In this document: positions 18,299 through 44,114 of the stretch, one piece after another | Numbering within the stretch: the stretch's first letter is position 1 | Layout: every line of letters starts with the position of its first letter | NCBI GenBank assembly: GCA_004195325.1 | Contig: SDWO01000073.1 | Coordinates: 1-44,442, forward strand | DNA length: 44,442 nt | Source of the DNA: Candidatus Izemoplasma acidinucleici | GTDB taxonomy: Bacteria; Bacillota_I; Bacilli_A; Izemoplasmatales; Izemoplasmataceae | Reading direction: 5' to 3' | Translations under genes and position numbers: made by a program | The notes under the pieces: generated by a model | What the model saw: the letters and a program-made list of their open reading frames with translations, nothing else | Told to the model about the DNA's origin: nothing | Databases searched by the model: none

Positions 18299-18375
18299 GT
18301 TTCGGTAGCTCAGTAGGATAGAGCAATGGCCTTCTAAGCCATCGGTCGGGGGTTCGAATCCCTCCCGGAATGCCA
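18299..18375 (+). tRNA. tRNA-Arg (UCU)
   Basis: A complete cloverleaf: acceptor GTTTCGG/CCGGAAT, D arm GCTC...GAGC with AGGA loop, anticodon arm ATGGC-CTTCTAA-GCCAT with anticodon TCT (Arg, AGA codons), T loop TTCGAAT, discriminator G and encoded CCA (18373-18375). AGA is the main Arg codon of this AT-rich genome. The tyrosine integrase gene lies 75 bases downstream, so the 3' end of this gene is the likely integration site of the element to its right. Confidence 0.96.
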
Positions 18376-18430: not shown

Positions 18431-18458
18431 AGGCCGTAGGTCGGCCAACCTACGGCCT
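18431..18458. repeat. Strong hairpin overlapping the integrase stop
   Basis: AGGCCGTAGGT (18431-18441) and ACCTACGGCCT (18448-18458) form a perfect 11-bp GC-rich stem with a 6-base loop. The integrase stop codon (18450-18452) lies in its arm. It is not followed by a T run on either strand. It could shield the integrase message or be part of the recombination site near the tRNA end. Confidence 0.7.
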
Positions 18459-19301
18459 CTTGATTACTCTGTTATATTCTTTTCTAAGTGTCTCAGAACC
18501 AACGTGTAAATACCTCTGAGTTGTCTTTAGATTTGAATGTCCTAACAACATTCTGAGAACTTCGATATTTCCATTACGTTCTGCAAACCTAGTTGCGAAT
18601 GTATGTCTCCATTTATGAGGAGTGATCGATTGTTTAATTTTTAAAGTTTTAGCCAGTCTCTGACAAAGTTTTTGAACGTTGTCAACAGAGAGTGGTTTTT
18701 TTGATTGCAATTTTATAAAGATAGTTGTTTTGATCTGATATTTTAATATGAATTTACTAAGGAGTGATTGTGATCTATCGGTATAAAAAACGTACCGATG
18801 TACTTTGGTTTTAGTTTTGGTTACATGAACTGTTTGTGTATCGAAATCAATATTGCTTACTTTCAATGAAAGCAACTCACTAATTCTTAAACCAGTATCC
18901 AATAGTAAACTAAACATCAATAAGTTTCTTTCACTTTCAGGGTGGTTATCCATTGTCAGGTATCTGAATATTTTTTTGATTGTAGATCCTGGAACAACTG
19001 TTACCAGTTTTGATTCTTCAGGTAGCTTGTCAAATTTGATTTCTTTTTCGATTGCATGATTTACTATTCTCTTCAGTACTTTAATATACTTATTTACTGT
19101 TGTATTCTCTATTAGAGGGTTTTTGTTTCTCAAATAGATAATTAGTTCAAGTATCTTTGTTTGGTCTATCTCAGAGCAGTTTATCTTCTTGAAGAATGTA
19201 ACCATGACACTAGTTTTTGATTTATTGAATCGATATGTCCCATTTGATTTAGTCACTTCATAATATCTCAGGTACTTCTCTGAAGCTTCACTAAACTTCA
19301 T
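18450..19301 (-). CDS. Tyrosine recombinase/phage integrase
   Basis: A 283-residue XerC/D-like integrase with a SAM-like N-terminal core-binding domain and a full catalytic set: Arg139 in DTGLRISELLSL, Lys in the TKTKTKVHRY hairpin, H229-x-x-R232 (HKWRHTFATRF), His255 (LLGHSNLKTT) and the nucleophile Tyr264 (TQRYLHV). It cuts and joins attachment sites for integration and excision. It is the last gene of the leftward phage block and ends 75 bases from tRNA-Arg, the classical place for an integrase. Its start overlaps the preceding gene by 11 bases. Confidence 0.93.
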   Translation of the reverse strand: MKFSEASEKYLRYYEVTKSNGTYRFNKSKTSVMVTFFKKINCSEIDQTKILELIIYLRNKNPLIENTTVNKYIKVLKRIVNHAIEKEIKFDKLPEESKLVTVVPGSTIKKIFRYLTMDNHPESERNLLMFSLLLDTGLRISELLSLKVSNIDFDTQTVHVTKTKTKVHRYVFYTDRSQSLLSKFILKYQIKTTIFIKLQSKKPLSVDNVQKLCQRLAKTLKIKQSITPHKWRHTFATRFAERNGNIEVLRMLLGHSNLKTTQRYLHVGSETLRKEYNRVIKRP

Positions 19302-19719
19302 GAATAAGATTTCCTAATCTATGAGGTCCCATCCTGGTACTAGTTCCTTTGTATGAATCTCCTATTGTTTTTGAATACACTTCCTGCTCACATCTATGAC
19401 AATGTGGAAGTAGTGAGTATATTGGATTGTGATTACAATCAATATAATATTCTGATTCTCTAGCTATGTAAATTGGAGTTGTATAACCTAAACATCGATA
19501 ACAATATAGATCCTTTTCATTATGTTTCTTAAATAGATCCACAAGTAATTTATCCTCATGAGGAATCAAGTTAGCTTGATCCTCGAATAGTGCTTTGTTA
19601 TTCTTATCAATTAAAACTGCGAAATCATCTTTATCTGAAATGTTTTGTTGAAATGCGATCAACATGAACAGCTCTTTTCTATGACTCCTGGTACTTACAA
19701 TATCAAATAGCTTATTCAT
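19291..19719 (-). CDS. Cysteine-rich (zinc-ribbon-like) phage-region protein
   Basis: A 142-residue unrecognised protein. The N-terminal 70 residues are helical. The C-terminal half has paired cysteines: YCYRC, a single C before NHNP, and HCHRCEQ. These could bind one or two zinc ions. The end, THRMGPHR-like (STRMGPHRLGNLIHEV), is basic. It overlaps the upstream gene by 8 bases (ATGAATAA) and the integrase by 11, so the three genes form one translational unit. A replication or recombination helper is possible but not shown. Confidence 0.75.
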   Translation of the reverse strand: MNKLFDIVSTRSHRKELFMLIAFQQNISDKDDFAVLIDKNNKALFEDQANLIPHEDKLLVDLFKKHNEKDLYCYRCLGYTTPIYIARESEYYIDCNHNPIYSLLPHCHRCEQEVYSKTIGDSYKGTSTRMGPHRLGNLIHEV

Positions 19720-20195: not shown

Positions 20196-20273
20196 TGGCG
20201 ATCGGACCCGAGACTTGAACTCGAGAAATTCATGTTCTTACACATGAATGTTTTACCAGTTAAACTATCGACC
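20196..20273 (-). tRNA. Irregular tRNA-like gene with 8-nt anticodon loop
   Basis: On the minus strand: a D arm GTTT...AAAC with loop AACTGGTA, an anticodon stem TTCATG/CATGAA of 6 bp closing an 8-base loop TGTAAGAA, a T arm TCGAG-TTCAAGT-CTCGG and a terminal GCCA. The acceptor pairs only partly (GGTCG with CGATC, then mismatches or a bulge). If the first U of the loop is U33, the anticodon is GUA (Tyr) with an extra base; counting from the 3' side gives AAG. Eight-base loops are known in +1 frameshift-suppressor tRNAs. It may equally be a decayed phage tRNA. It lies between two phage genes and should be co-transcribed. Confidence 0.6.
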
Positions 20274-20277
20274 ATCT

Positions 20278-20300
20278 AAAGCGATCAGCTGATCGCTTTT
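20278..20300. terminator. Perfect 22-bp palindrome, possible terminator
   Basis: AAAGCGATCAG (20278-20288) directly followed by its complement CTGATCGCTTT (20289-20299). It lies between the 421-residue gene and the tRNA-like gene. T runs on both sides are short, so it may be a weak terminator or a processing/binding site. Confidence 0.55.
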
Positions 20301-20307
20301 ATTGTGC

Positions 20308-21573
20308 TTAAATAATGAATATTAGTGCAAAGATACCAATGACAATTACATAGAATACTAGAGTAAGGGGTCCGAATACTTCTTCGAGTCCCTTGTTTAT
20401 GCTCTTGATTGAATACGATATTCCTTTTCCAGTATTTTTCAGAACAGAGTCTCCTGTATTTTTGGCTGTTTTAAAGAATCCAGTTGTTACTTTTACAGAG
20501 CCTTTGGTAAGAAATTCAATTAACTTTTTCGCTACCATGTATCCAACCACCACAGCTGAGAACGCTCCTATAACTGCAAGACCTACAGCTTTTACAACTG
20601 CCCAAAGCCAATCACCGAATCCGTCAAATGTTGGCCACTCCCAAACATCATCCAACCCAGCCAATAATGAATCTTGATATTCTGCACTACCATCGACTTC
20701 ATGCGATGAATCTTCAGCAATGATAATACAACTCTCATCGCCTACTGGACATATTTCCGCAAAATACATTCCAAAGTTTAATTCAGGAATTGCCTCGTAC
20801 TCGTTTTTTAACTCTTCTAGTTCTAAGGCTTTCCTGGTTGTATTAAACTCATTGTTAATTGATATCTGATGTGCTTCATATTCAAATTGTGACTGTATGT
20901 CTAATCCTAGTTGAACCATTTCAGCATCTGTTAATACAAAACCGATTTCAATAATAACGATAACGTCTATTGGTCTTGTTTCCCATAAAGGAATTTTCCA
21001 AGCATAGTCTGAGTTATATACAGCCTCATTCGGTGCGATATAACCTGCGATATCTTCGTTTCCTAAATCTTGCTCTACAAATATTTCATAAACTTCTGTT
21101 GAAACAAGCTCTCCGATATCCAAACCATTTGAGCAGGAATCCGCCCAAAATACTAAATAGTCTCCAAAATTTTTATTACATACAGCTTCTGTTGTATAAA
21201 TGAAACTTAAATACTCGAGTCTCTCTAAGTCTCTTGAGAAATTCACATAAATTGTATTATATTTATATCCGCCAATTTCGTAATATTCAGATCTTTTATC
21301 TGTGATTTCTACAACACCGTACCATTTTTCAGTTACAGAATCATAACTTATACGTTTATAAGTTCCCTCGTCTGTGACGTATTCTCCATCATATACTTCT
21401 TCTCGACATTGCCAAATTAAACCTGTGCAGGTTTCCTCAATGATTTCTTCAGGAGTTGGTTCAGTGATTTCTTCAGGAGTTTCTTCTACAATAGGATCTT
21501 CAGCTTGAACATGTTGATTCCCAACACCTACGAATACAAACATCATGAGTATCAGAATTAATATCTTTTTCAT
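20308..21573 (-). CDS. Secreted, membrane-anchored phage-region protein (minor coat candidate)
   Basis: A 421-residue protein with a signal peptide (MKKILILILMMFVFVGVGNQ, cleavage near AEDP), a Pro/Glu repeat (VEETPEEITEPTPEEIIEE), a large exposed region with six or more cysteines, and two C-terminal membrane spans (about 325-350, and 400-421: VFYVIVIGIFALIFII). The build (signal, exposed domain, C-terminal hydrophobic anchors) resembles filamentous-phage minor coat proteins such as pIII/pVI and their gene position. No family match is claimed. It follows the DUF5011-like gene by 4 bases in the same operon. Confidence 0.75.
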   Translation of the reverse strand: MKKILILILMMFVFVGVGNQHVQAEDPIVEETPEEITEPTPEEIIEETCTGLIWQCREEVYDGEYVTDEGTYKRISYDSVTEKWYGVVEITDKRSEYYEIGGYKYNTIYVNFSRDLERLEYLSFIYTTEAVCNKNFGDYLVFWADSCSNGLDIGELVSTEVYEIFVEQDLGNEDIAGYIAPNEAVYNSDYAWKIPLWETRPIDVIVIIEIGFVLTDAEMVQLGLDIQSQFEYEAHQISINNEFNTTRKALELEELKNEYEAIPELNFGMYFAEICPVGDESCIIIAEDSSHEVDGSAEYQDSLLAGLDDVWEWPTFDGFGDWLWAVVKAVGLAVIGAFSAVVVGYMVAKKLIEFLTKGSVKVTTGFFKTAKNTGDSVLKNTGKGISYSIKSINKGLEEVFGPLTLVFYVIVIGIFALIFII

Positions 21574-24549: not shown

Positions 24550-26622
24550 TTATATTCCTTTCTTTGAATCAGGATTCTCGAAATCTAAGTACACTTGATT
24601 CAGGGTTTTAATTACTTTGTCTCTATTGAATCTTTTATCATCTTTCCTAGACTGATTAACTTGTTCTTCAGTAATCAATCCTAGATCAACTGACACGTTC
24701 TCAAGTTCAGTATTTGATAGATTATATATCCAATGATTTGGTATATATTTAGTGTTTTTAAGAAGATTGATTCTTGCATGATATAACCTTTTGGTTTTAT
24801 CTTCAGGTTTCTCATATTTGTTCAAATTGTTATATTCGATTGTAATGAACTTCACTAAATCGTCTTTTGATAATTCTAGATATTCATGTCCAAAATAGAT
24901 TAAATCATCATTTGTAAGTACTCCCATATCTACAGCTGATAAGTAAAGCTCTATTTCTTCTAAGTGGTCTAGGTTTGGAGCTTCTACCTTTTTCCATCTT
25001 TTCTTACTATCTCTACGATTAGCTTCTTGCTCAAGTTTTTTGCTATTGATTCTCAAGCGTGATGATTTCATTAGTTCTTCAAACGTTGAGTAGTTGGTAC
25101 TTGACATTGATTCATAATCAGGTGTCTGTGTCTTCCAGTTCTCAACATCATCAAAGCTCATAGAATGAATAATCTGTTTGGCTTCTCTCACTGTTCCCAT
25201 GAAGTGTGTATTGTATAGTCCGAAACAATCTTTAATTCTATTAGTCTGTTTGAATCCGAACATATGATAGTCACTACCTGAAGTATCTTTTGTAACTCCA
25301 AATAAAGGCCATTTAACCTTTTTGCTAACATCATCTTCATTTAGATAAATACCTTTGAAGAATATAATATAACCCTTAGCCCAACGTTTAAGATTCTTCT
25401 GTTCTAAGCATGATATTTTCTTTTTGTTTTTAATGATCCATTTATTGTATAACTTCGTTTGCCATTTGAATTTAGGGAACAACAATCTAACTCGATAGAA
25501 GAAGATTCTTACTTTTTTTCTGAAGATTTTAAATGAGCGAACCGCTCTTGTGAACTCTCCAGTTGCTTTGAATTTCAACTTGAATACATGTATATAACCC
25601 TCAAACAATTCTCTAAGAGTTTTGATTGGTCTTTTGTGATCCTGTGTAATTGATCTATACCAAAGCATTTCCCTGAATAAATGTCCAAATACTGTGTGGA
25701 ACTCTTTTATTCCTGAGATTTTGTTAATATCTTCAGCAACTGCTGTATCGTTATTAACATAATAGATACCTGTTTCAGTTTCAATTACCATTCCTCTAGT
25801 TGGTAAAGGCATTGGGTGGTCTTCTTTGATTCTAATATAGTTCTGTGAGAATTTTTTTGAAAACAACTTATTGATTCTCCCAGTTTTTTTATTGATTGAG
25901 TAATCTTCTATGGTTGGTTGATTTGTCATTAAGAAGTTTTGAACGTAGTTGTATTGAATATATATCATGACAAACTCGAACAATAGATCTAAATAACTTT
26001 TACCTCCAGGTACTATTCCATCTTCAAATGGAATGTCAGGAACATACTTTCCTGATTTGTGTTTCCAACTGAAGTAATGTTCTTTTGGATCTATTTTGTT
26101 TTTATACTGTTCATTGATGAACATATCCTCATTCAATAATGCGCTTTTGAATACTTCCTTAATTCTAAAGTCTGAAGATACAAAGAAATCTCTGTAGTGT
26201 TGATCAAAATAGTTTGTTACTCTCTTCATGTCATACATGTATAAAATATAAGATAACTGTTTCAGCCTTTTCTTTTCAGCTCTTAGTAATCGTTCTTTTA
26301 ATAACCTAGCTTCTCCAATAGTTCCTGAGTCTTTACCTGATCGCTTTTTACCTGATACTTGACTATTGGGTGGAACAACTTCCTGAATCACTTTACCTGA
26401 AGCTATTCTATATAACTCATGAGTTAATCTTTCAAAGAACAGTTTATACAGTATGAACAATCCTAGTAATGAAATGGATCCAATTATACTAAATCTGATC
26501 ATAACATCGATTACTTTATCAAAACTCCAGTGATCGAATGTAAACATGTATACCACAAATGCGATGAACAGTAATGTTGCAATACTGAGTATCTTAATGA
26601 ATGGTCTTATAAATGTACTCAT
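24550..26622 (-). CDS. Zot-like membrane ATPase (inovirus morphogenesis protein candidate)
   Basis: A 690-residue protein with two N-terminal spans (about 10-28 and 43-61), then a P-loop GKKRSGKDS (91-99, GxxxxGK pattern with Asp after Lys) and a beta-strand block GMVIETETGIYYVNND (about 278-292). HLFREMLWYRSITQDHKR followed by TLRELFEGYIHVF comes at about 314-347. That last block matches the Zot/pI pattern (HRH...ITQ...R.LR.LV..HIHV). Zot-type ATPases assemble and extrude filamentous phage through the membrane. The about 340-residue C-terminal part is helical, basic and unrecognised. The gene is bigger than usual (350-450). It is coupled by a 1-base overlap to the gene before. Confidence 0.75.
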   Translation of the reverse strand: MSTFIRPFIKILSIATLLFIAFVVYMFTFDHWSFDKVIDVMIRFSIIGSISLLGLFILYKLFFERLTHELYRIASGKVIQEVVPPNSQVSGKKRSGKDSGTIGEARLLKERLLRAEKKRLKQLSYILYMYDMKRVTNYFDQHYRDFFVSSDFRIKEVFKSALLNEDMFINEQYKNKIDPKEHYFSWKHKSGKYVPDIPFEDGIVPGGKSYLDLLFEFVMIYIQYNYVQNFLMTNQPTIEDYSINKKTGRINKLFSKKFSQNYIRIKEDHPMPLPTRGMVIETETGIYYVNNDTAVAEDINKISGIKEFHTVFGHLFREMLWYRSITQDHKRPIKTLRELFEGYIHVFKLKFKATGEFTRAVRSFKIFRKKVRIFFYRVRLLFPKFKWQTKLYNKWIIKNKKKISCLEQKNLKRWAKGYIIFFKGIYLNEDDVSKKVKWPLFGVTKDTSGSDYHMFGFKQTNRIKDCFGLYNTHFMGTVREAKQIIHSMSFDDVENWKTQTPDYESMSSTNYSTFEELMKSSRLRINSKKLEQEANRRDSKKRWKKVEAPNLDHLEEIELYLSAVDMGVLTNDDLIYFGHEYLELSKDDLVKFITIEYNNLNKYEKPEDKTKRLYHARINLLKNTKYIPNHWIYNLSNTELENVSVDLGLITEEQVNQSRKDDKRFNRDKVIKTLNQVYLDFENPDSKKGI

Positions 26623-29159: not shown

Positions 29160-30083
29160 ATGAAGGATAATAAAATACAAATATTTTTATCATGGTCTAT
29201 GGAATTAAGCAAAGATGTAGCAGAGTTATTTGCCGATTGGATACCGAATGTCATTCAAGTTGTAGATCCATACTATTCACCAGTAGATAATGATAAGGGA
29301 AAAAGATGGAATGATGAGATTGCTGCAAAATTAGAAAGTTCATTAATGGGTATTATTTTTGTGACTCAGGAGAACTACAACTCTATGTGGATGAATTTTG
29401 AAGCTGGAGCACTATCAAATACATTTGAAAATGCTAGTGTGTGTCCAGTTTTAATAGATAGTACTTATACGAAATCCAATTTAGTAAAATATAGTTCTCC
29501 ATTAACAACTTTTATGTGTACCGAATTTAATAAGAAAGATATGGAGAAACTAGTAAAATCTATTTTCAATGTTATACCTGAACAAACCAGACCTAAATGG
29601 GATGTAGTAAGCAAAGCTTTTGAAACGTATTATGATGAACTTGAATCTGAAGTGCATCGTCTTATTGATGCTAATAAAAAAAGAAACAAGAAGCAAATTG
29701 TAGATAAAGAAATCAGTAATGAGGATATATTTTCAACTGTTAAGGATCTAGTTGTCCATGTAATGAATAATGGTAAGAATATTGACAATACAGAAAGTAA
29801 AATTTATGAGTTATCTGAGAAGTTTGACACAAAATATAGTCATGATTACGCATTAAATAGGCTTGGTCGAAATGATAATCTATCTAAATTTAGTCGAAAT
29901 GCAAATTCTGATTTGAAAATTCCGTTGTCGGGTTATAAATTAATACAAGCTAATTCTATAAAATCCATACCTGGATTTCCTCTAACTACATATAGATGTA
30001 ATATTTGTGGTGTAGTATTTAATTATCCTGTATCTGGTCTGTGTCCAACCTGTGGGGCATCTAGTTACGAGTCCACCAATTAG
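29160..30083 (+). CDS. TIR-domain protein with C-terminal zinc ribbon (defence effector candidate)
   Basis: Residues 1-130 are a TIR domain: IQIFLSWSMELSKDVAELFADW, WNDEIAAKLESSLMGIIFVT, then SMWMNFEAGALSNTFE with Glu81 in the position of the catalytic glutamate of NAD-cleaving TIRs. A helical linker is followed by a rubredoxin-type zinc ribbon, CNIC (280/283) and CPTC (295/298). Bacterial TIR proteins degrade NAD+ in several anti-phage systems. The zinc ribbon could sense or bind a partner. The paired zinc/HEPN-like protein is the probable sensor or regulator. Ribosome site AAGGGAAGAAGG. Confidence 0.85.
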   Translation: MKDNKIQIFLSWSMELSKDVAELFADWIPNVIQVVDPYYSPVDNDKGKRWNDEIAAKLESSLMGIIFVTQENYNSMWMNFEAGALSNTFENASVCPVLIDSTYTKSNLVKYSSPLTTFMCTEFNKKDMEKLVKSIFNVIPEQTRPKWDVVSKAFETYYDELESEVHRLIDANKKRNKKQIVDKEISNEDIFSTVKDLVVHVMNNGKNIDNTESKIYELSEKFDTKYSHDYALNRLGRNDNLSKFSRNANSDLKIPLSGYKLIQANSIKSIPGFPLTTYRCNICGVVFNYPVSGLCPTCGASSYESTN

Positions 30084-41696: not shown

Positions 41697-41905
41697 AATA
41701 GACTAGGTCATGATGTTCTTCCAACCTATCTAACTTATCTTTAGAGTAGCAAACGTGAAATCAAAACTCATTGAGTAAACAGGACCATTTTGGTCCTATT
41801 TGTTTCTTTGATTTGTGATACTATTGACATTTAACATAAGTCTAGGATTTTAGAAATATTTGATAGATGACTTCAAGCTTAATAAAGGAAGGAAATGAAA
41901 GAAAG

Positions 41906-43186
41906 ATGAGAATAAAAAGATTTATTGGCAAAAAGATTTATGGATTTTTAGATTTAGATGTATCATTTAATGATGATTTATCATTTCTTCATGGGAAGAA
42001 TGGTACTGGGAAGACAACAGTATTAAAACTCATATATTACTTAACAAACCCTTCATTATTGGATTTATACATTATACGTTTTTTAGAGGTGAAATTAATA
42101 TTAGAGATTGAGGATAGGCTATATGAAATTGCTGCAAAAAAAATTGAGGAATATAAAATGGTCCTTCAAGTTGTTGAAATAACTCATGGGAGAGTTAATA
42201 GAAGAGAGCTAATAATTGACCCTCCATCTTATAAATCTAATCGTGCAATTTATAGAGATACTGAGGAAATGGAAGAGTATATAAACTCTGTAATGAACAG
42301 AGAGGAGAGAAATGATACACTATTGTTCTTAAACAATATTCAAAGCATTCTATTTTTAGGTTTAGATAGGATGCAAAAACTTTCAAAATCAGTTAATAGA
42401 AGAAGAAGATTGAAAAACTCATTAATTGATACTGATGAGTCCATGAGAGAGTCTCTAGAAAATATTTATATGCAATATAAAACTTCAAAGAAGGAAGAGG
42501 AGAAAATTCTCGAGGAGTTTAGAAAAGAAATTATTTTCCATTCATTTGAAACTTTAACTGATAGTACTAGTGAAGTTGAAGTCTCACTTGATCAGTTGAA
42601 AGAAGCTCTTAAGGACAGGGATAACATTCGTGACACATTTGGTATGCTTAGTGATCCTAGACTCACAGAATCACTAGATCACTTTTTTGATGCTGTTCAA
42701 AGTTATGTTGATATATCCATCAATAGCGAGGATGATCTAAATTTTTATAGAGTAATTTATTTTACTGAAATGAACAAATTAGTTGATCTGCACAGGATTG
42801 TTACAAGTTATCAAAAGGATATAGAGCAACCACTTAGAAAATTCTCTCATTTTGAAATGTTGATGAATCAGTTCTTTGCGGATTCAGGTAAAGAATTAAA
42901 AATAGACTTTGGTGAAGTTAGGCTCTTTAATAACGGTTCCGTCTCATCTTCTACCAAATCATTATCATCTGGAGAGAGACAGCTGTTCTTGATTTTTTCA
43001 AAGGTGTTCTTTGCAAGCAGCTCAGAAGTATTGATTATTGATGAGCCGGAGTTATCCCTTCATCCTACTTGGCAAAAAATGTTTGTAAAGAAACTGAGAA
43101 ACACTTGCAATAATATGCAGTTAATTATGGCGACACATTCACCCGAGATTGTTGCACGTAATATTGAAAAAATTATAGGTATTTAG
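41906..43186 (+). CDS. AAA/ABC-type ATPase of an OLD/PARIS-like defence pair
   Basis: A 426-residue SMC/RecF-like ATPase: Walker A GKNGTGKTT (30-38), a coiled-coil middle (YKTSKKEEEKILEEFRKEI), ABC signature LSSGERQLFLIFSK, Walker B VLIIDEPELSLHP and switch His in MATHSPEIV. The C-terminus lacks a nuclease domain; the next gene, 1 base after the stop, would supply it. That order matches AriA-AriB (PARIS) and other AAA_15 plus DUF4435/TOPRIM pairs. I choose ATG 41906 (MRIKRFIGKK, the family-like start) over 41867, which has no ribosome site. The upstream purine-rich GGAAGG is 14 bases away, so the start is not certain. Confidence 0.85.
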   Translation: MRIKRFIGKKIYGFLDLDVSFNDDLSFLHGKNGTGKTTVLKLIYYLTNPSLLDLYIIRFLEVKLILEIEDRLYEIAAKKIEEYKMVLQVVEITHGRVNRRELIIDPPSYKSNRAIYRDTEEMEEYINSVMNREERNDTLLFLNNIQSILFLGLDRMQKLSKSVNRRRRLKNSLIDTDESMRESLENIYMQYKTSKKEEEKILEEFRKEIIFHSFETLTDSTSEVEVSLDQLKEALKDRDNIRDTFGMLSDPRLTESLDHFFDAVQSYVDISINSEDDLNFYRVIYFTEMNKLVDLHRIVTSYQKDIEQPLRKFSHFEMLMNQFFADSGKELKIDFGEVRLFNNGSVSSSTKSLSSGERQLFLIFSKVFFASSSEVLIIDEPELSLHPTWQKMFVKKLRNTCNNMQLIMATHSPEIVARNIEKIIGI

Positions 43187-43187
43187 G

Positions 43188-44114
43188 ATGTTAGTGCGAA
43201 AAGCTCCAGAAGATATTATAGCATCCGGATTCTATCATTTTGGGTGTGGTAGAATTATTTTTATGCAAGATACAGGTCAGGAGTTGGAGGATATTCATTC
43301 TAGAATAATAAAAAGAATTGGCAATGTTAATCTTTCAATAGTATACCATGCTGGCAGGTCGAAAATATTAGAAATCGCCGAGTATTACAATAGTAATAAA
43401 AACAAGTACGAGAACGAGTTGAAAATTAAATGCTACTTCATTGTCGGAGCCTCAACTCAGAGAAATGAGTTTATACCTCAAAATGATAACTTGTTTATCC
43501 TAGGTAAAGTTCAATTAGATAATTACTTATATGATGAGAAGTTATTTTACACTTTTGTTCAAAAAGAAAAACCAAAAAGTTTCCCCTCATTACCTCAATT
43601 CAAAAGCGATTTTGAAATTTTGAAGTCTGGGAATACAGATAAATTATTAAAGTTACTTATAACACTATCATTGTGTGATTTAAAAGAAGTATTAGTGGAT
43701 AAGGAAAAATTTGATTGTAGTAGAATAATCTCTTCAAATTCAACTCGAGTCAGTAAAGTTAAAATTAATGATATAACACAATTTGTTCATAGGAAGATTA
43801 GATTAGAAAAAGGTATTAAGATAAAAGAGTTAATATCAAAGATAGCTGACGATCATGGTATTGTTATCCTTGAAATGGAAGCAGATCAAGATCACATACA
43901 TATGTTAATAGACTGTAAACCTCAACATTATCTTCCAAGTATCATAAAAGCATTTAAAGGTACGAGTGCTAGATTTTTATTTCTACAGTACCCAGAACTT
44001 CGAAATGAGCTATGGGGAGGTCACCTTTGGAATCCGACCTATTTTGTATCAACAGTAAGTGAACATACAGAAAGTCAAATAAAAGCATATATAAAAAATC
44101 AGAAGATCAAATAA
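43188..44114 (+). CDS. DUF4435/TOPRIM-like protein joined in frame to an IS200 transposase C-terminus
   Basis: A 308-residue hybrid. Residues 1 to about 195 look like a DUF4435 (AriB-like) partner of the ATPase: a GRIIFMQDTGQELEDIHSRI start, KCYFIVGASTQRNEF and NLFILGKVQLDNYLYD (compare D-x-D and ENYL motifs of TOPRIM/DUF4435). The usual acidic residues after FIV are missing. From about 205 it is the Y1 transposase TnpA: KELISKIADDHGIVILEMEA, HUH motif DHIHML, GGHLWNPTYFVSTVSEHTES and a KAYIKNQ tyrosine helix. The TnpA lacks its first 30-45 residues. The defence partner is therefore truncated, or this is a fused remnant. Activity of either half is doubtful. Confidence 0.72.
   Translation: MLVRKAPEDIIASGFYHFGCGRIIFMQDTGQELEDIHSRIIKRIGNVNLSIVYHAGRSKILEIAEYYNSNKNKYENELKIKCYFIVGASTQRNEFIPQNDNLFILGKVQLDNYLYDEKLFYTFVQKEKPKSFPSLPQFKSDFEILKSGNTDKLLKLLITLSLCDLKEVLVDKEKFDCSRIISSNSTRVSKVKINDITQFVHRKIRLEKGIKIKELISKIADDHGIVILEMEADQDHIHMLIDCKPQHYLPSIIKAFKGTSARFLFLQYPELRNELWGGHLWNPTYFVSTVSEHTESQIKAYIKNQKIK

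What the first reader, a model, noticed from the sequence alone, without database searches (positions are those of the whole stretch)
20196..20273. Phage-borne tRNA-like gene with an 8-base anticodon loop
D arm, T arm (TTCAAGT) and CCA end are tRNA-like, yet the anticodon stem (TTCATG/CATGAA) closes an 8-base loop TGTAAGAA and the acceptor has mismatches. Eight-base loops belong to +1 frameshift suppressors. A phage-carried suppressor, a decoy for tRNA-cutting defence (PARIS AriB cuts a tRNA, and an AriB-like gene is in this window), or a decayed tRNA are all possible.
Basis: partly seen in the sequence, partly recalled or inferred. Interest (0 to 1): 0.62.

Follow-up and report, generated by a model that had tools for sequence, protein, structure and literature searches.

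The report
Conserved anticodon-less tRNA-like element in operon
Between two genes of a virus-like element integrated in a bacterial chromosome lies an RNA that keeps the shape of a tRNA's corner and end but not a working anticodon; three related elements keep it in the same place, so it is probably an RNA-processing or RNA-binding signal rather than a tRNA that helps make protein.

Summary
The tRNA-like sequence is real. It lies on the minus strand (20273 to 20196), folds as a cloverleaf, and scores 24.1 bits against Rfam tRNA (cut-off 29; ARAGORN misses it). It is not a frameshift-suppressor tRNA. Two related integrated elements in another genus (L044, L045; neighbouring ATPase about 40% identical) carry a homologous tRNA-like structure (TLS) at the same place: after the last gene of a secreted/Ig-protein operon, directly 3' of a conserved hairpin. 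The TLS is an island of conservation (z 10.5 against shuffles; flanks 0.9-1.6), with five pairs changed on both sides. D arm, T loop and 5' acceptor strand are kept; the anticodon hairpin is not (loops of 6, 4 and 5 nt), and the '8-base loop' closes one further U-A pair. Fresh decay of a host tRNA, translation and a PARIS decoy are unlikely; PARIS genes were seen in only one of the three, where the AriB-position gene is interrupted by an IS200 fragment. Best reading: a conserved anticodon-less TLS, most likely an RNase P-type processing ('punctuation') signal that ends the structural mRNA at its hairpin and separates it from the integrase-side genes. No expression data; only three elements known.

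The parts
20196..20273 (-). tRNA-like structure (TLS), 78 nt: 5' G1 at 20273, CCA at 20198-20196
   Evidence: Rfam tRNA 24.1 bits; MFE cloverleaf; homologues at same site in L044 and L045
20250..20265 (-). D arm GTTT-AACTGGTA-AAAC (identical in L044/L045 apart from loop length)
20207..20225 (-). T arm, 6-bp stem CTCGAG/CTCGGG, loop TTCAAGT; two pairs changed on both sides between relatives
20269..20273 (-). acceptor 5' strand GGTCG, pairs with CGATC at 20200-20204
20278..20299 (-). conserved hairpin directly 5' of the TLS, AAAGCGATCAGCTGATCGCTTT; no T-run on the operon strand, T-run only on the opposite strand
20308..21573 (-). upstream gene: 421-aa secreted/membrane protein, last gene of the structural-type operon
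   Evidence: homologues in L044/L045/L261
19712..20173 (-). downstream gene: about 153-aa membrane protein, AGGGGG ribosome site about 10 nt after the TLS; absent from L044/L045, where the zinc-ribbon gene comes next
19291..19719 (-). zinc-ribbon-like protein (CxxC pairs), next conserved gene
18450..19301 (-). tyrosine integrase (PF00589, E 2e-35)
18299..18375 (+). tRNA-Arg(TCT), integration site (its 3' part recurs next to the integrase in L045)
24550..26622 (-). 690-aa membrane P-loop protein, weakly Zot/HerA-like by fold; marker of the element family

Best explanation
A conserved tRNA-like structure that keeps the tRNA elbow (D/T loops) and acceptor end but has no functional anticodon arm, carried as an intercistronic RNA element by a small clade of virus-like integrated elements. 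Most likely mechanism (inferred): it is transcribed within the operon mRNA and recognised by host tRNA-processing enzymes, first of all RNase P, which cuts at its 5' end. The upstream structural mRNA is then left with a 3' hairpin (20278-20299) that protects it, and the downstream zinc-ribbon/integrase part is separated and decays or is expressed on its own. Shown here: position, fold, conservation, loss of anticodon constraint. Inferred: transcription, cleavage, effect on mRNA.
For: Same place and order (421-aa gene, hairpin, TLS, zinc-ribbon gene) in three elements. TLS far more conserved than flanks: z 10.5 and 8.7 versus 0.4-1.6; L044 vs L045 downstream z = 0 while TLS z = 19; still z 5.8 and 4.2 without the D arm. 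Consensus fold predicted unaided is a hairpin plus cloverleaf with 5 pairs changed on both sides; in the named acceptor/D/T structure 97.8% of cells pair, 3 pairs change on both sides, and sliding destroys it. What is kept (GG in D loop, TTCAA in T loop, T stem plus acceptor, U at -1, purine-CCA in two of three) is what RNase P reads; what varies (anticodon arm) is what it ignores (own knowledge). The hairpin 3-4 nt upstream is conserved with a C-G to T-A change but lacks a U-run on the operon strand, so a processed 3' end fits better than plain termination. In window and L045 a ribosome site follows the TLS within about 10-15 nt. Precedent: RNase P cuts bacterial polycistronic mRNAs and phage RNAs (review PMC11143913).
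Against: No transcript or cleavage data. Only three elements (two of one genus). Acceptor is imperfect (L044 two mismatches; window one bulge, or an alternative register that hides the CCA) and L045 ends in CTA, so RNase P use is not assured. The short leader between hairpin and TLS (3-4 nt) may hinder RNase P. More distant elements with related ATPases lack it. With three sequences the covariation alone does not clear the shuffles (30/500 reach it).
Confidence: 0.45

Rival explanations
1. Decaying phage-type tRNA gene with no present function: an ancestral element acquired a tRNA (D arm of the kind common in phage tRNAs) and the anticodon arm has since drifted.
For: D arm ATAGTTTA..GGTAAAAC is common in phage tRNAs, and other phage contigs carry isolated anticodon-defective tRNA-like genes, one of them not conserved in relatives. 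The window TLS resembles a phage tRNA-Thr(TGT) as much as it does L044's TLS (biased, since those tRNAs were fetched by the D-arm pattern). CM scores are below cut-off.
Against: Elbow and acceptor kept while flanks are saturated; pairs kept by changes on both sides.
Confidence: 0.2
2. tRNA decoy or sponge: a stable tRNA-like RNA that titrates a tRNA-targeting defence nuclease, a toxin or a tRNA-modifying/degrading factor, with the anticodon altered so that it cannot be cut or cannot be used.
For: Phage tRNAs with altered anticodon loops are proposed to resist anticodon nucleases (PMC10264068). The window carries an AriA-like gene.
Against: The anticodon loop, target of anticodon nucleases, differs in every element; ten neighbouring proteins of L044/L045 match no PARIS model; the AriB-position ORF in the window is interrupted by IS200 transposase. 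No own promoter clearly above background.
Confidence: 0.15
3. Nucleic-acid signal of the element itself (ssDNA packaging or replication hairpin after the morphogenesis genes, as the packaging signal of filamentous phages).
For: Lies just after the structural-type operon; the ATPase fold is weakly Zot/HerA-like; hairpin plus cloverleaf fold strongly (z -3.2 to -4.7).
Against: Conservation follows tRNA elbow letters (GG, TTCAA), which matter in RNA; assignment to filamentous viruses is weak (best PDB E 0.05).
Confidence: 0.1
4. Translating tRNA, including a +1 frameshift suppressor with an 8-base loop.
Against: Loops 6/4/5 nt with different letters in relatives, 7-8 bp anticodon stem, no U33, irregular acceptor; neither ARAGORN nor the Rfam cut-off is met in any of the three.
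Confidence: 0.03

Closest known systems
RNase P substrates in bacterial polycistronic mRNAs and phage RNAs (his and other operons, phage M3 RNA, C4 antisense RNA; reviewed in PMC11143913)
   Same: Structured RNA between co-directional genes, expected to be cut by RNase P
   Different: Those are mostly transient or partial tRNA mimics; here a nearly complete cloverleaf with T loop, D loop and CCA is kept in a mobile element. Cleavage not shown.
tRNA punctuation in mitochondrial polycistronic transcripts (e.g. PMC8601606)
   Same: A tRNA-shaped unit between coding genes that could mark mRNA ends
   Different: Here the unit is not a working tRNA and occurs once in a bacterial virus-like element
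Viral tRNA-like structures of RNA viruses (PMC5723415)
   Same: tRNA mimic without a normal tRNA function, encoded by a virus-like element
   Different: Internal in an operon of an integrated DNA element, not at the 3' end of an RNA genome; close to a classical cloverleaf, no pseudoknot seen
Phage-encoded tRNAs that resist anticodon nucleases (PMC10264068)
   Same: Phage-type D arm, altered anticodon loop
   Different: Those stay decodable tRNAs (own knowledge); here the anticodon arm is not conserved at all

Membership tests
Rfam RF00005 tRNA | score at or above 29 bits | tested here: not met
   24.1, 28.3 and 27.9 bits in window, L044, L045
functional elongator tRNA | 5-bp anticodon stem with 7-nt loop and U33 | tested here: not met
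   7-8 bp stems with 6/4/5-nt loops
functional elongator tRNA | 7-bp acceptor stem and NCCA | tested here: not met
   4-6 pairs; CCA in window and L044, CTA in L045
functional elongator tRNA | D loop GG and T loop TTCRA | tested here: met
   invariant in all three
+1 frameshift suppressor tRNA | 8-nt anticodon loop kept in relatives | tested here: not met
RNase P-processed intercistronic element | lies between co-directional genes, in sense orientation | tested here: met
   window, L044, L045
RNase P-processed intercistronic element | T-stem/acceptor stack of about 12 bp with free RCCA | tested here: inconclusive
   6-bp T stem plus 4-6 bp acceptor; free-end register favoured in two of three, near tie in window; L045 lacks CCA
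RNase P-processed intercistronic element | cleavage at G1 | not testable with these tools
   needs RNA experiments
decoy for PARIS AriB | co-occurs with an intact PARIS | tested here: not met
   window has AriA-like ATPase only, the next ORF matches IS200 transposase and no AriB model; no PARIS model among ten neighbouring proteins of L044/L045
Inoviridae (carrier element) | Zot/pI-like ATPase | tested here: inconclusive
   no Pfam or convincing PHROG hit; AlphaFold model nearest to Zot domain 2r2a, E 0.05, prob 0.90-0.96, and Inoviridae Zot E 0.009

The most novel reading that the evidence does not exclude
A new class of intercistronic RNA element: an anticodon-less tRNA mimic that a family of virus-like integrated elements keeps behind its structural operon so that host RNase P makes the 3' end of the mRNA ('punctuation' by a false tRNA in a bacterial virus).
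Probability: 0.35. Interest if true: 0.65.

Novelty: new variant of a known kind. Interest (0 to 1): 0.45.

Why it matters
It would show a DNA virus-like element using a false tRNA as an mRNA end-former or factor-binding site, and it gives a simple marker (tRNA score just below cut-off, anticodon arm drifting, elbow kept, fixed place in an operon) with which the many 'odd tRNAs' of phage genomes can be sorted into decaying genes and kept tRNA mimics.

Tried and rejected
Direct DNA homologues in phage and plasmid records: none meaningful. ATPase and Ig-protein relatives in IMG/VR, phages, plasmids: none. Covariance model R1 over 90 genomes of the order: only the three TLS at 79-98 bits; all other hits at most 38.7 bits, and those looked at are ordinary tRNAs, so no further copies. 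Origin as a copy of a host tRNA: nearest is tRNA-Asp, 54 of 82 columns, not close. Link to the att site rejected: L044's element has a different integrase next to tRNA-Cys yet keeps the TLS. An independent look-alike in a siphophage (L055, TLS after the major tail protein gene, 5-nt loop) first looked like support for a general rule, but relatives with 65-73% identical tail proteins lack it, so it counts only as a sporadic case. The first structure prediction, with seven sequences, was poor. A further structured RNA after L044's TLS was suspected; fold z = -0.1, rejected. Rfam scans of the gaps give only tRNA, or nothing.

Full report
What is there. On the minus strand, 20273 to 20196, the sequence GGTCGATAGTTTAACTGGTAAAACATTCATGTGTAAGAACATGAATTTCTCGAGTTCAAGTCTCGGGTCCGATCGCCA reads like a tRNA with a strange middle. 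ARAGORN finds only tRNA-Arg(TCT) at 18299-18375 in the window. Rfam's tRNA model matches positions 20267-20208 at 24.1 bits against a cut-off of 29. In the whole 1.9-Mb genome 27 matches pass the cut-off; below it are this one, a damaged-looking tRNA-Gln at 22.9 bits inside a tRNA array, and one at 18.1 bits. So it is more than chance, but not a standard tRNA.

The anticodon arm. The acceptor has two possible registers in the window, one with free GCCA (GGUCG/CGAUC, -20.4 kcal/mol) and one in which UGG pairs with CCA (-20.7); in the relatives the free-end register wins by 1.7-2.0 kcal/mol.

Context. The TLS lies in an integrated element: a tyrosine integrase (18450-19301) next to tRNA-Arg(TCT), whose 3' part also recurs beside the integrase of a relative (L045). 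Going upstream on the minus strand come a zinc-ribbon-like gene, a small membrane protein, the TLS, a hairpin, a 421-aa secreted/membrane protein, two Ig-like secreted proteins, a 690-aa membrane P-loop protein and a small HTH protein. The P-loop protein has no Pfam match and no convincing PHROG match; its AlphaFold model (mean pLDDT 74) is nearest, among solved structures, to the N-terminal domain of Zot, the extrusion ATPase of filamentous phages (PDB 2r2a, E 0.05, probability 0.90-0.96), followed by HerA; among viral models the top hit (E 4e-5) has no name and the next three are Inoviridae Zot proteins (E 0.009 to 0.025). 'Virus-like element' is thus a fair but unproven description. The far end of the element is not in this contig: no second copy of the att sequence was found in the window.

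Relatives. The P-loop protein has relatives at about 40% identity in the same bacterial family. Two of them, L044 and L045, are long enough and carry, at the same place, a hairpin and a tRNA-like structure: GGTTGATAGTTTAAGGTAAAACACCAGGAGTAATAACTCCATGGAGAACATGAGTTCAATTCTCATGAAGACCACCA and GGTTGATAGTTTATGGTAAAACACCAGGAGTAATTCTCCATGGAGAACATGAGTTCAACTCTCATGACAATCACTA. Rfam gives them 28.3 and 27.9 bits, again below the cut-off. A third relative (L034/L046) ends before the site. L044's element uses another integrase next to tRNA-Cys, so the TLS belongs to the structural module, not to the att site. More distant relatives (L047-L049, L139-L147, L261) lack it; in L261 the ATPase gene follows the 421-aa homologue with little gap, so the site itself is absent.

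Selection. Window and L044 TLS align with 56 identities, z = 10.5 against shuffles, window and L045 z = 8.7; the 67 nt at the end of the upstream gene and the 76 nt after the TLS give z between 0.4 and 1.6. Between L044 and L045 the TLS gives z = 19 and the next 76 nt z = 0. Leaving out the D arm, the comparison still stands at z = 5.8 and 4.2. RNAalifold on the three sequences predicts hairpin and cloverleaf unaided, with five pairs changed on both sides. For the named acceptor, D and T stems 97.8% of cells pair, three pairs change on both sides and sliding the partners destroys the pairing; the shuffle control is not decisive with three sequences (30 of 500 reach it). The anticodon arm, in contrast, is unrelated in sequence between window and the other two, with loops of 6, 4 and 5 nt. 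A model built from the three finds no other copy in 90 genomes of the order: the three score 79-98 bits, everything else 38.7 or less.

What it most likely does. The elbow (D-loop GG with T-loop TTCAA), the T stem and the acceptor end are what tRNA-processing enzymes such as RNase P, RNase Z and CCA-adding enzyme recognise; they do not need the anticodon arm (established knowledge). Loss of constraint on just that arm, a place inside an operon, a conserved hairpin 3-4 nt upstream that lacks a U-run on the operon strand, and ribosome sites close behind the TLS in window and L045 fit an RNase P-type processing point: the structural mRNA would end in the hairpin, and the zinc-ribbon/integrase part would be released. 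RNase P is known to act on bacterial polycistronic mRNAs and phage RNAs (PMC11143913), and tRNAs mark mRNA ends in mitochondria (PMC8601606). All steps from transcription on are inferred. Promoter-like matches before the hairpin exist in all three but are within what shuffles give, so a separate short leader RNA cannot be excluded.

Rivals. Decay of an acquired phage-type tRNA is the serious rival: the D arm is of the phage kind, other phage contigs hold anticodon-defective tRNA-like genes, and one such case in a siphophage is not conserved in its relatives. Against it stands the conservation above. A decoy role is possible in principle, but the idea tied to PARIS is weak: the AriA-like ATPase is followed by an ORF whose C-terminal third is IS200 transposase and which matches no AriB model, and ten neighbouring proteins of L044 and L045 match no PARIS model (not an exhaustive scan of those elements). 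A +1 suppressor is not supported.

Limits. Its family includes a genome whose 4709-bp contig (G005:C88) appears to be the one titled Bacillales bacterium UBA3566.

Noticed in passing
window 41867-44114 (+): AriA-like PARIS ATPase followed by an ORF whose C-terminal third is IS200-type transposase: the AriB-position gene seems interrupted.
   Followed up: partly
L029 (G000:C65:2275-2346, minus): A tRNA-Gln(TTG)-like gene inside the host's tRNA array scores only 22.9 bits and lacks a proper acceptor stem; real damage, assembly error or a second copy elsewhere not checked.
   Followed up: no
L055, L086, L058, L064, L077, L103, L111 (IMG/VR contigs): Phage tRNA-like genes with intact D arm but 4-5-nt anticodon loops; L055's lies between the major tail protein gene and the next gene, behind a terminator hairpin.
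   Followed up: partly
window 24550-26622 and relatives in L044, L045, L139, L047-L049, L140-L147: Unnamed family of membrane P-loop proteins (GxxRSGKDS, NQP, ETE motifs), often with Ig-like secreted neighbours, in many genomes of the class; looks like an undescribed Zot/HerA-like virus or mobile-element family without Pfam or PHROG models.
   Followed up: partly
L111 20-90 and 977-1050: Two near-identical phage tRNA-like genes called tRNA-Stop(TTA) by ARAGORN flank the same two genes.
   Followed up: no
window 29160-30083 (+): TIR-domain protein matching the PADLOC TIR-TM model (E 6e-52), with a C-terminal zinc-ribbon-like end, in the same contig.
   Followed up: no
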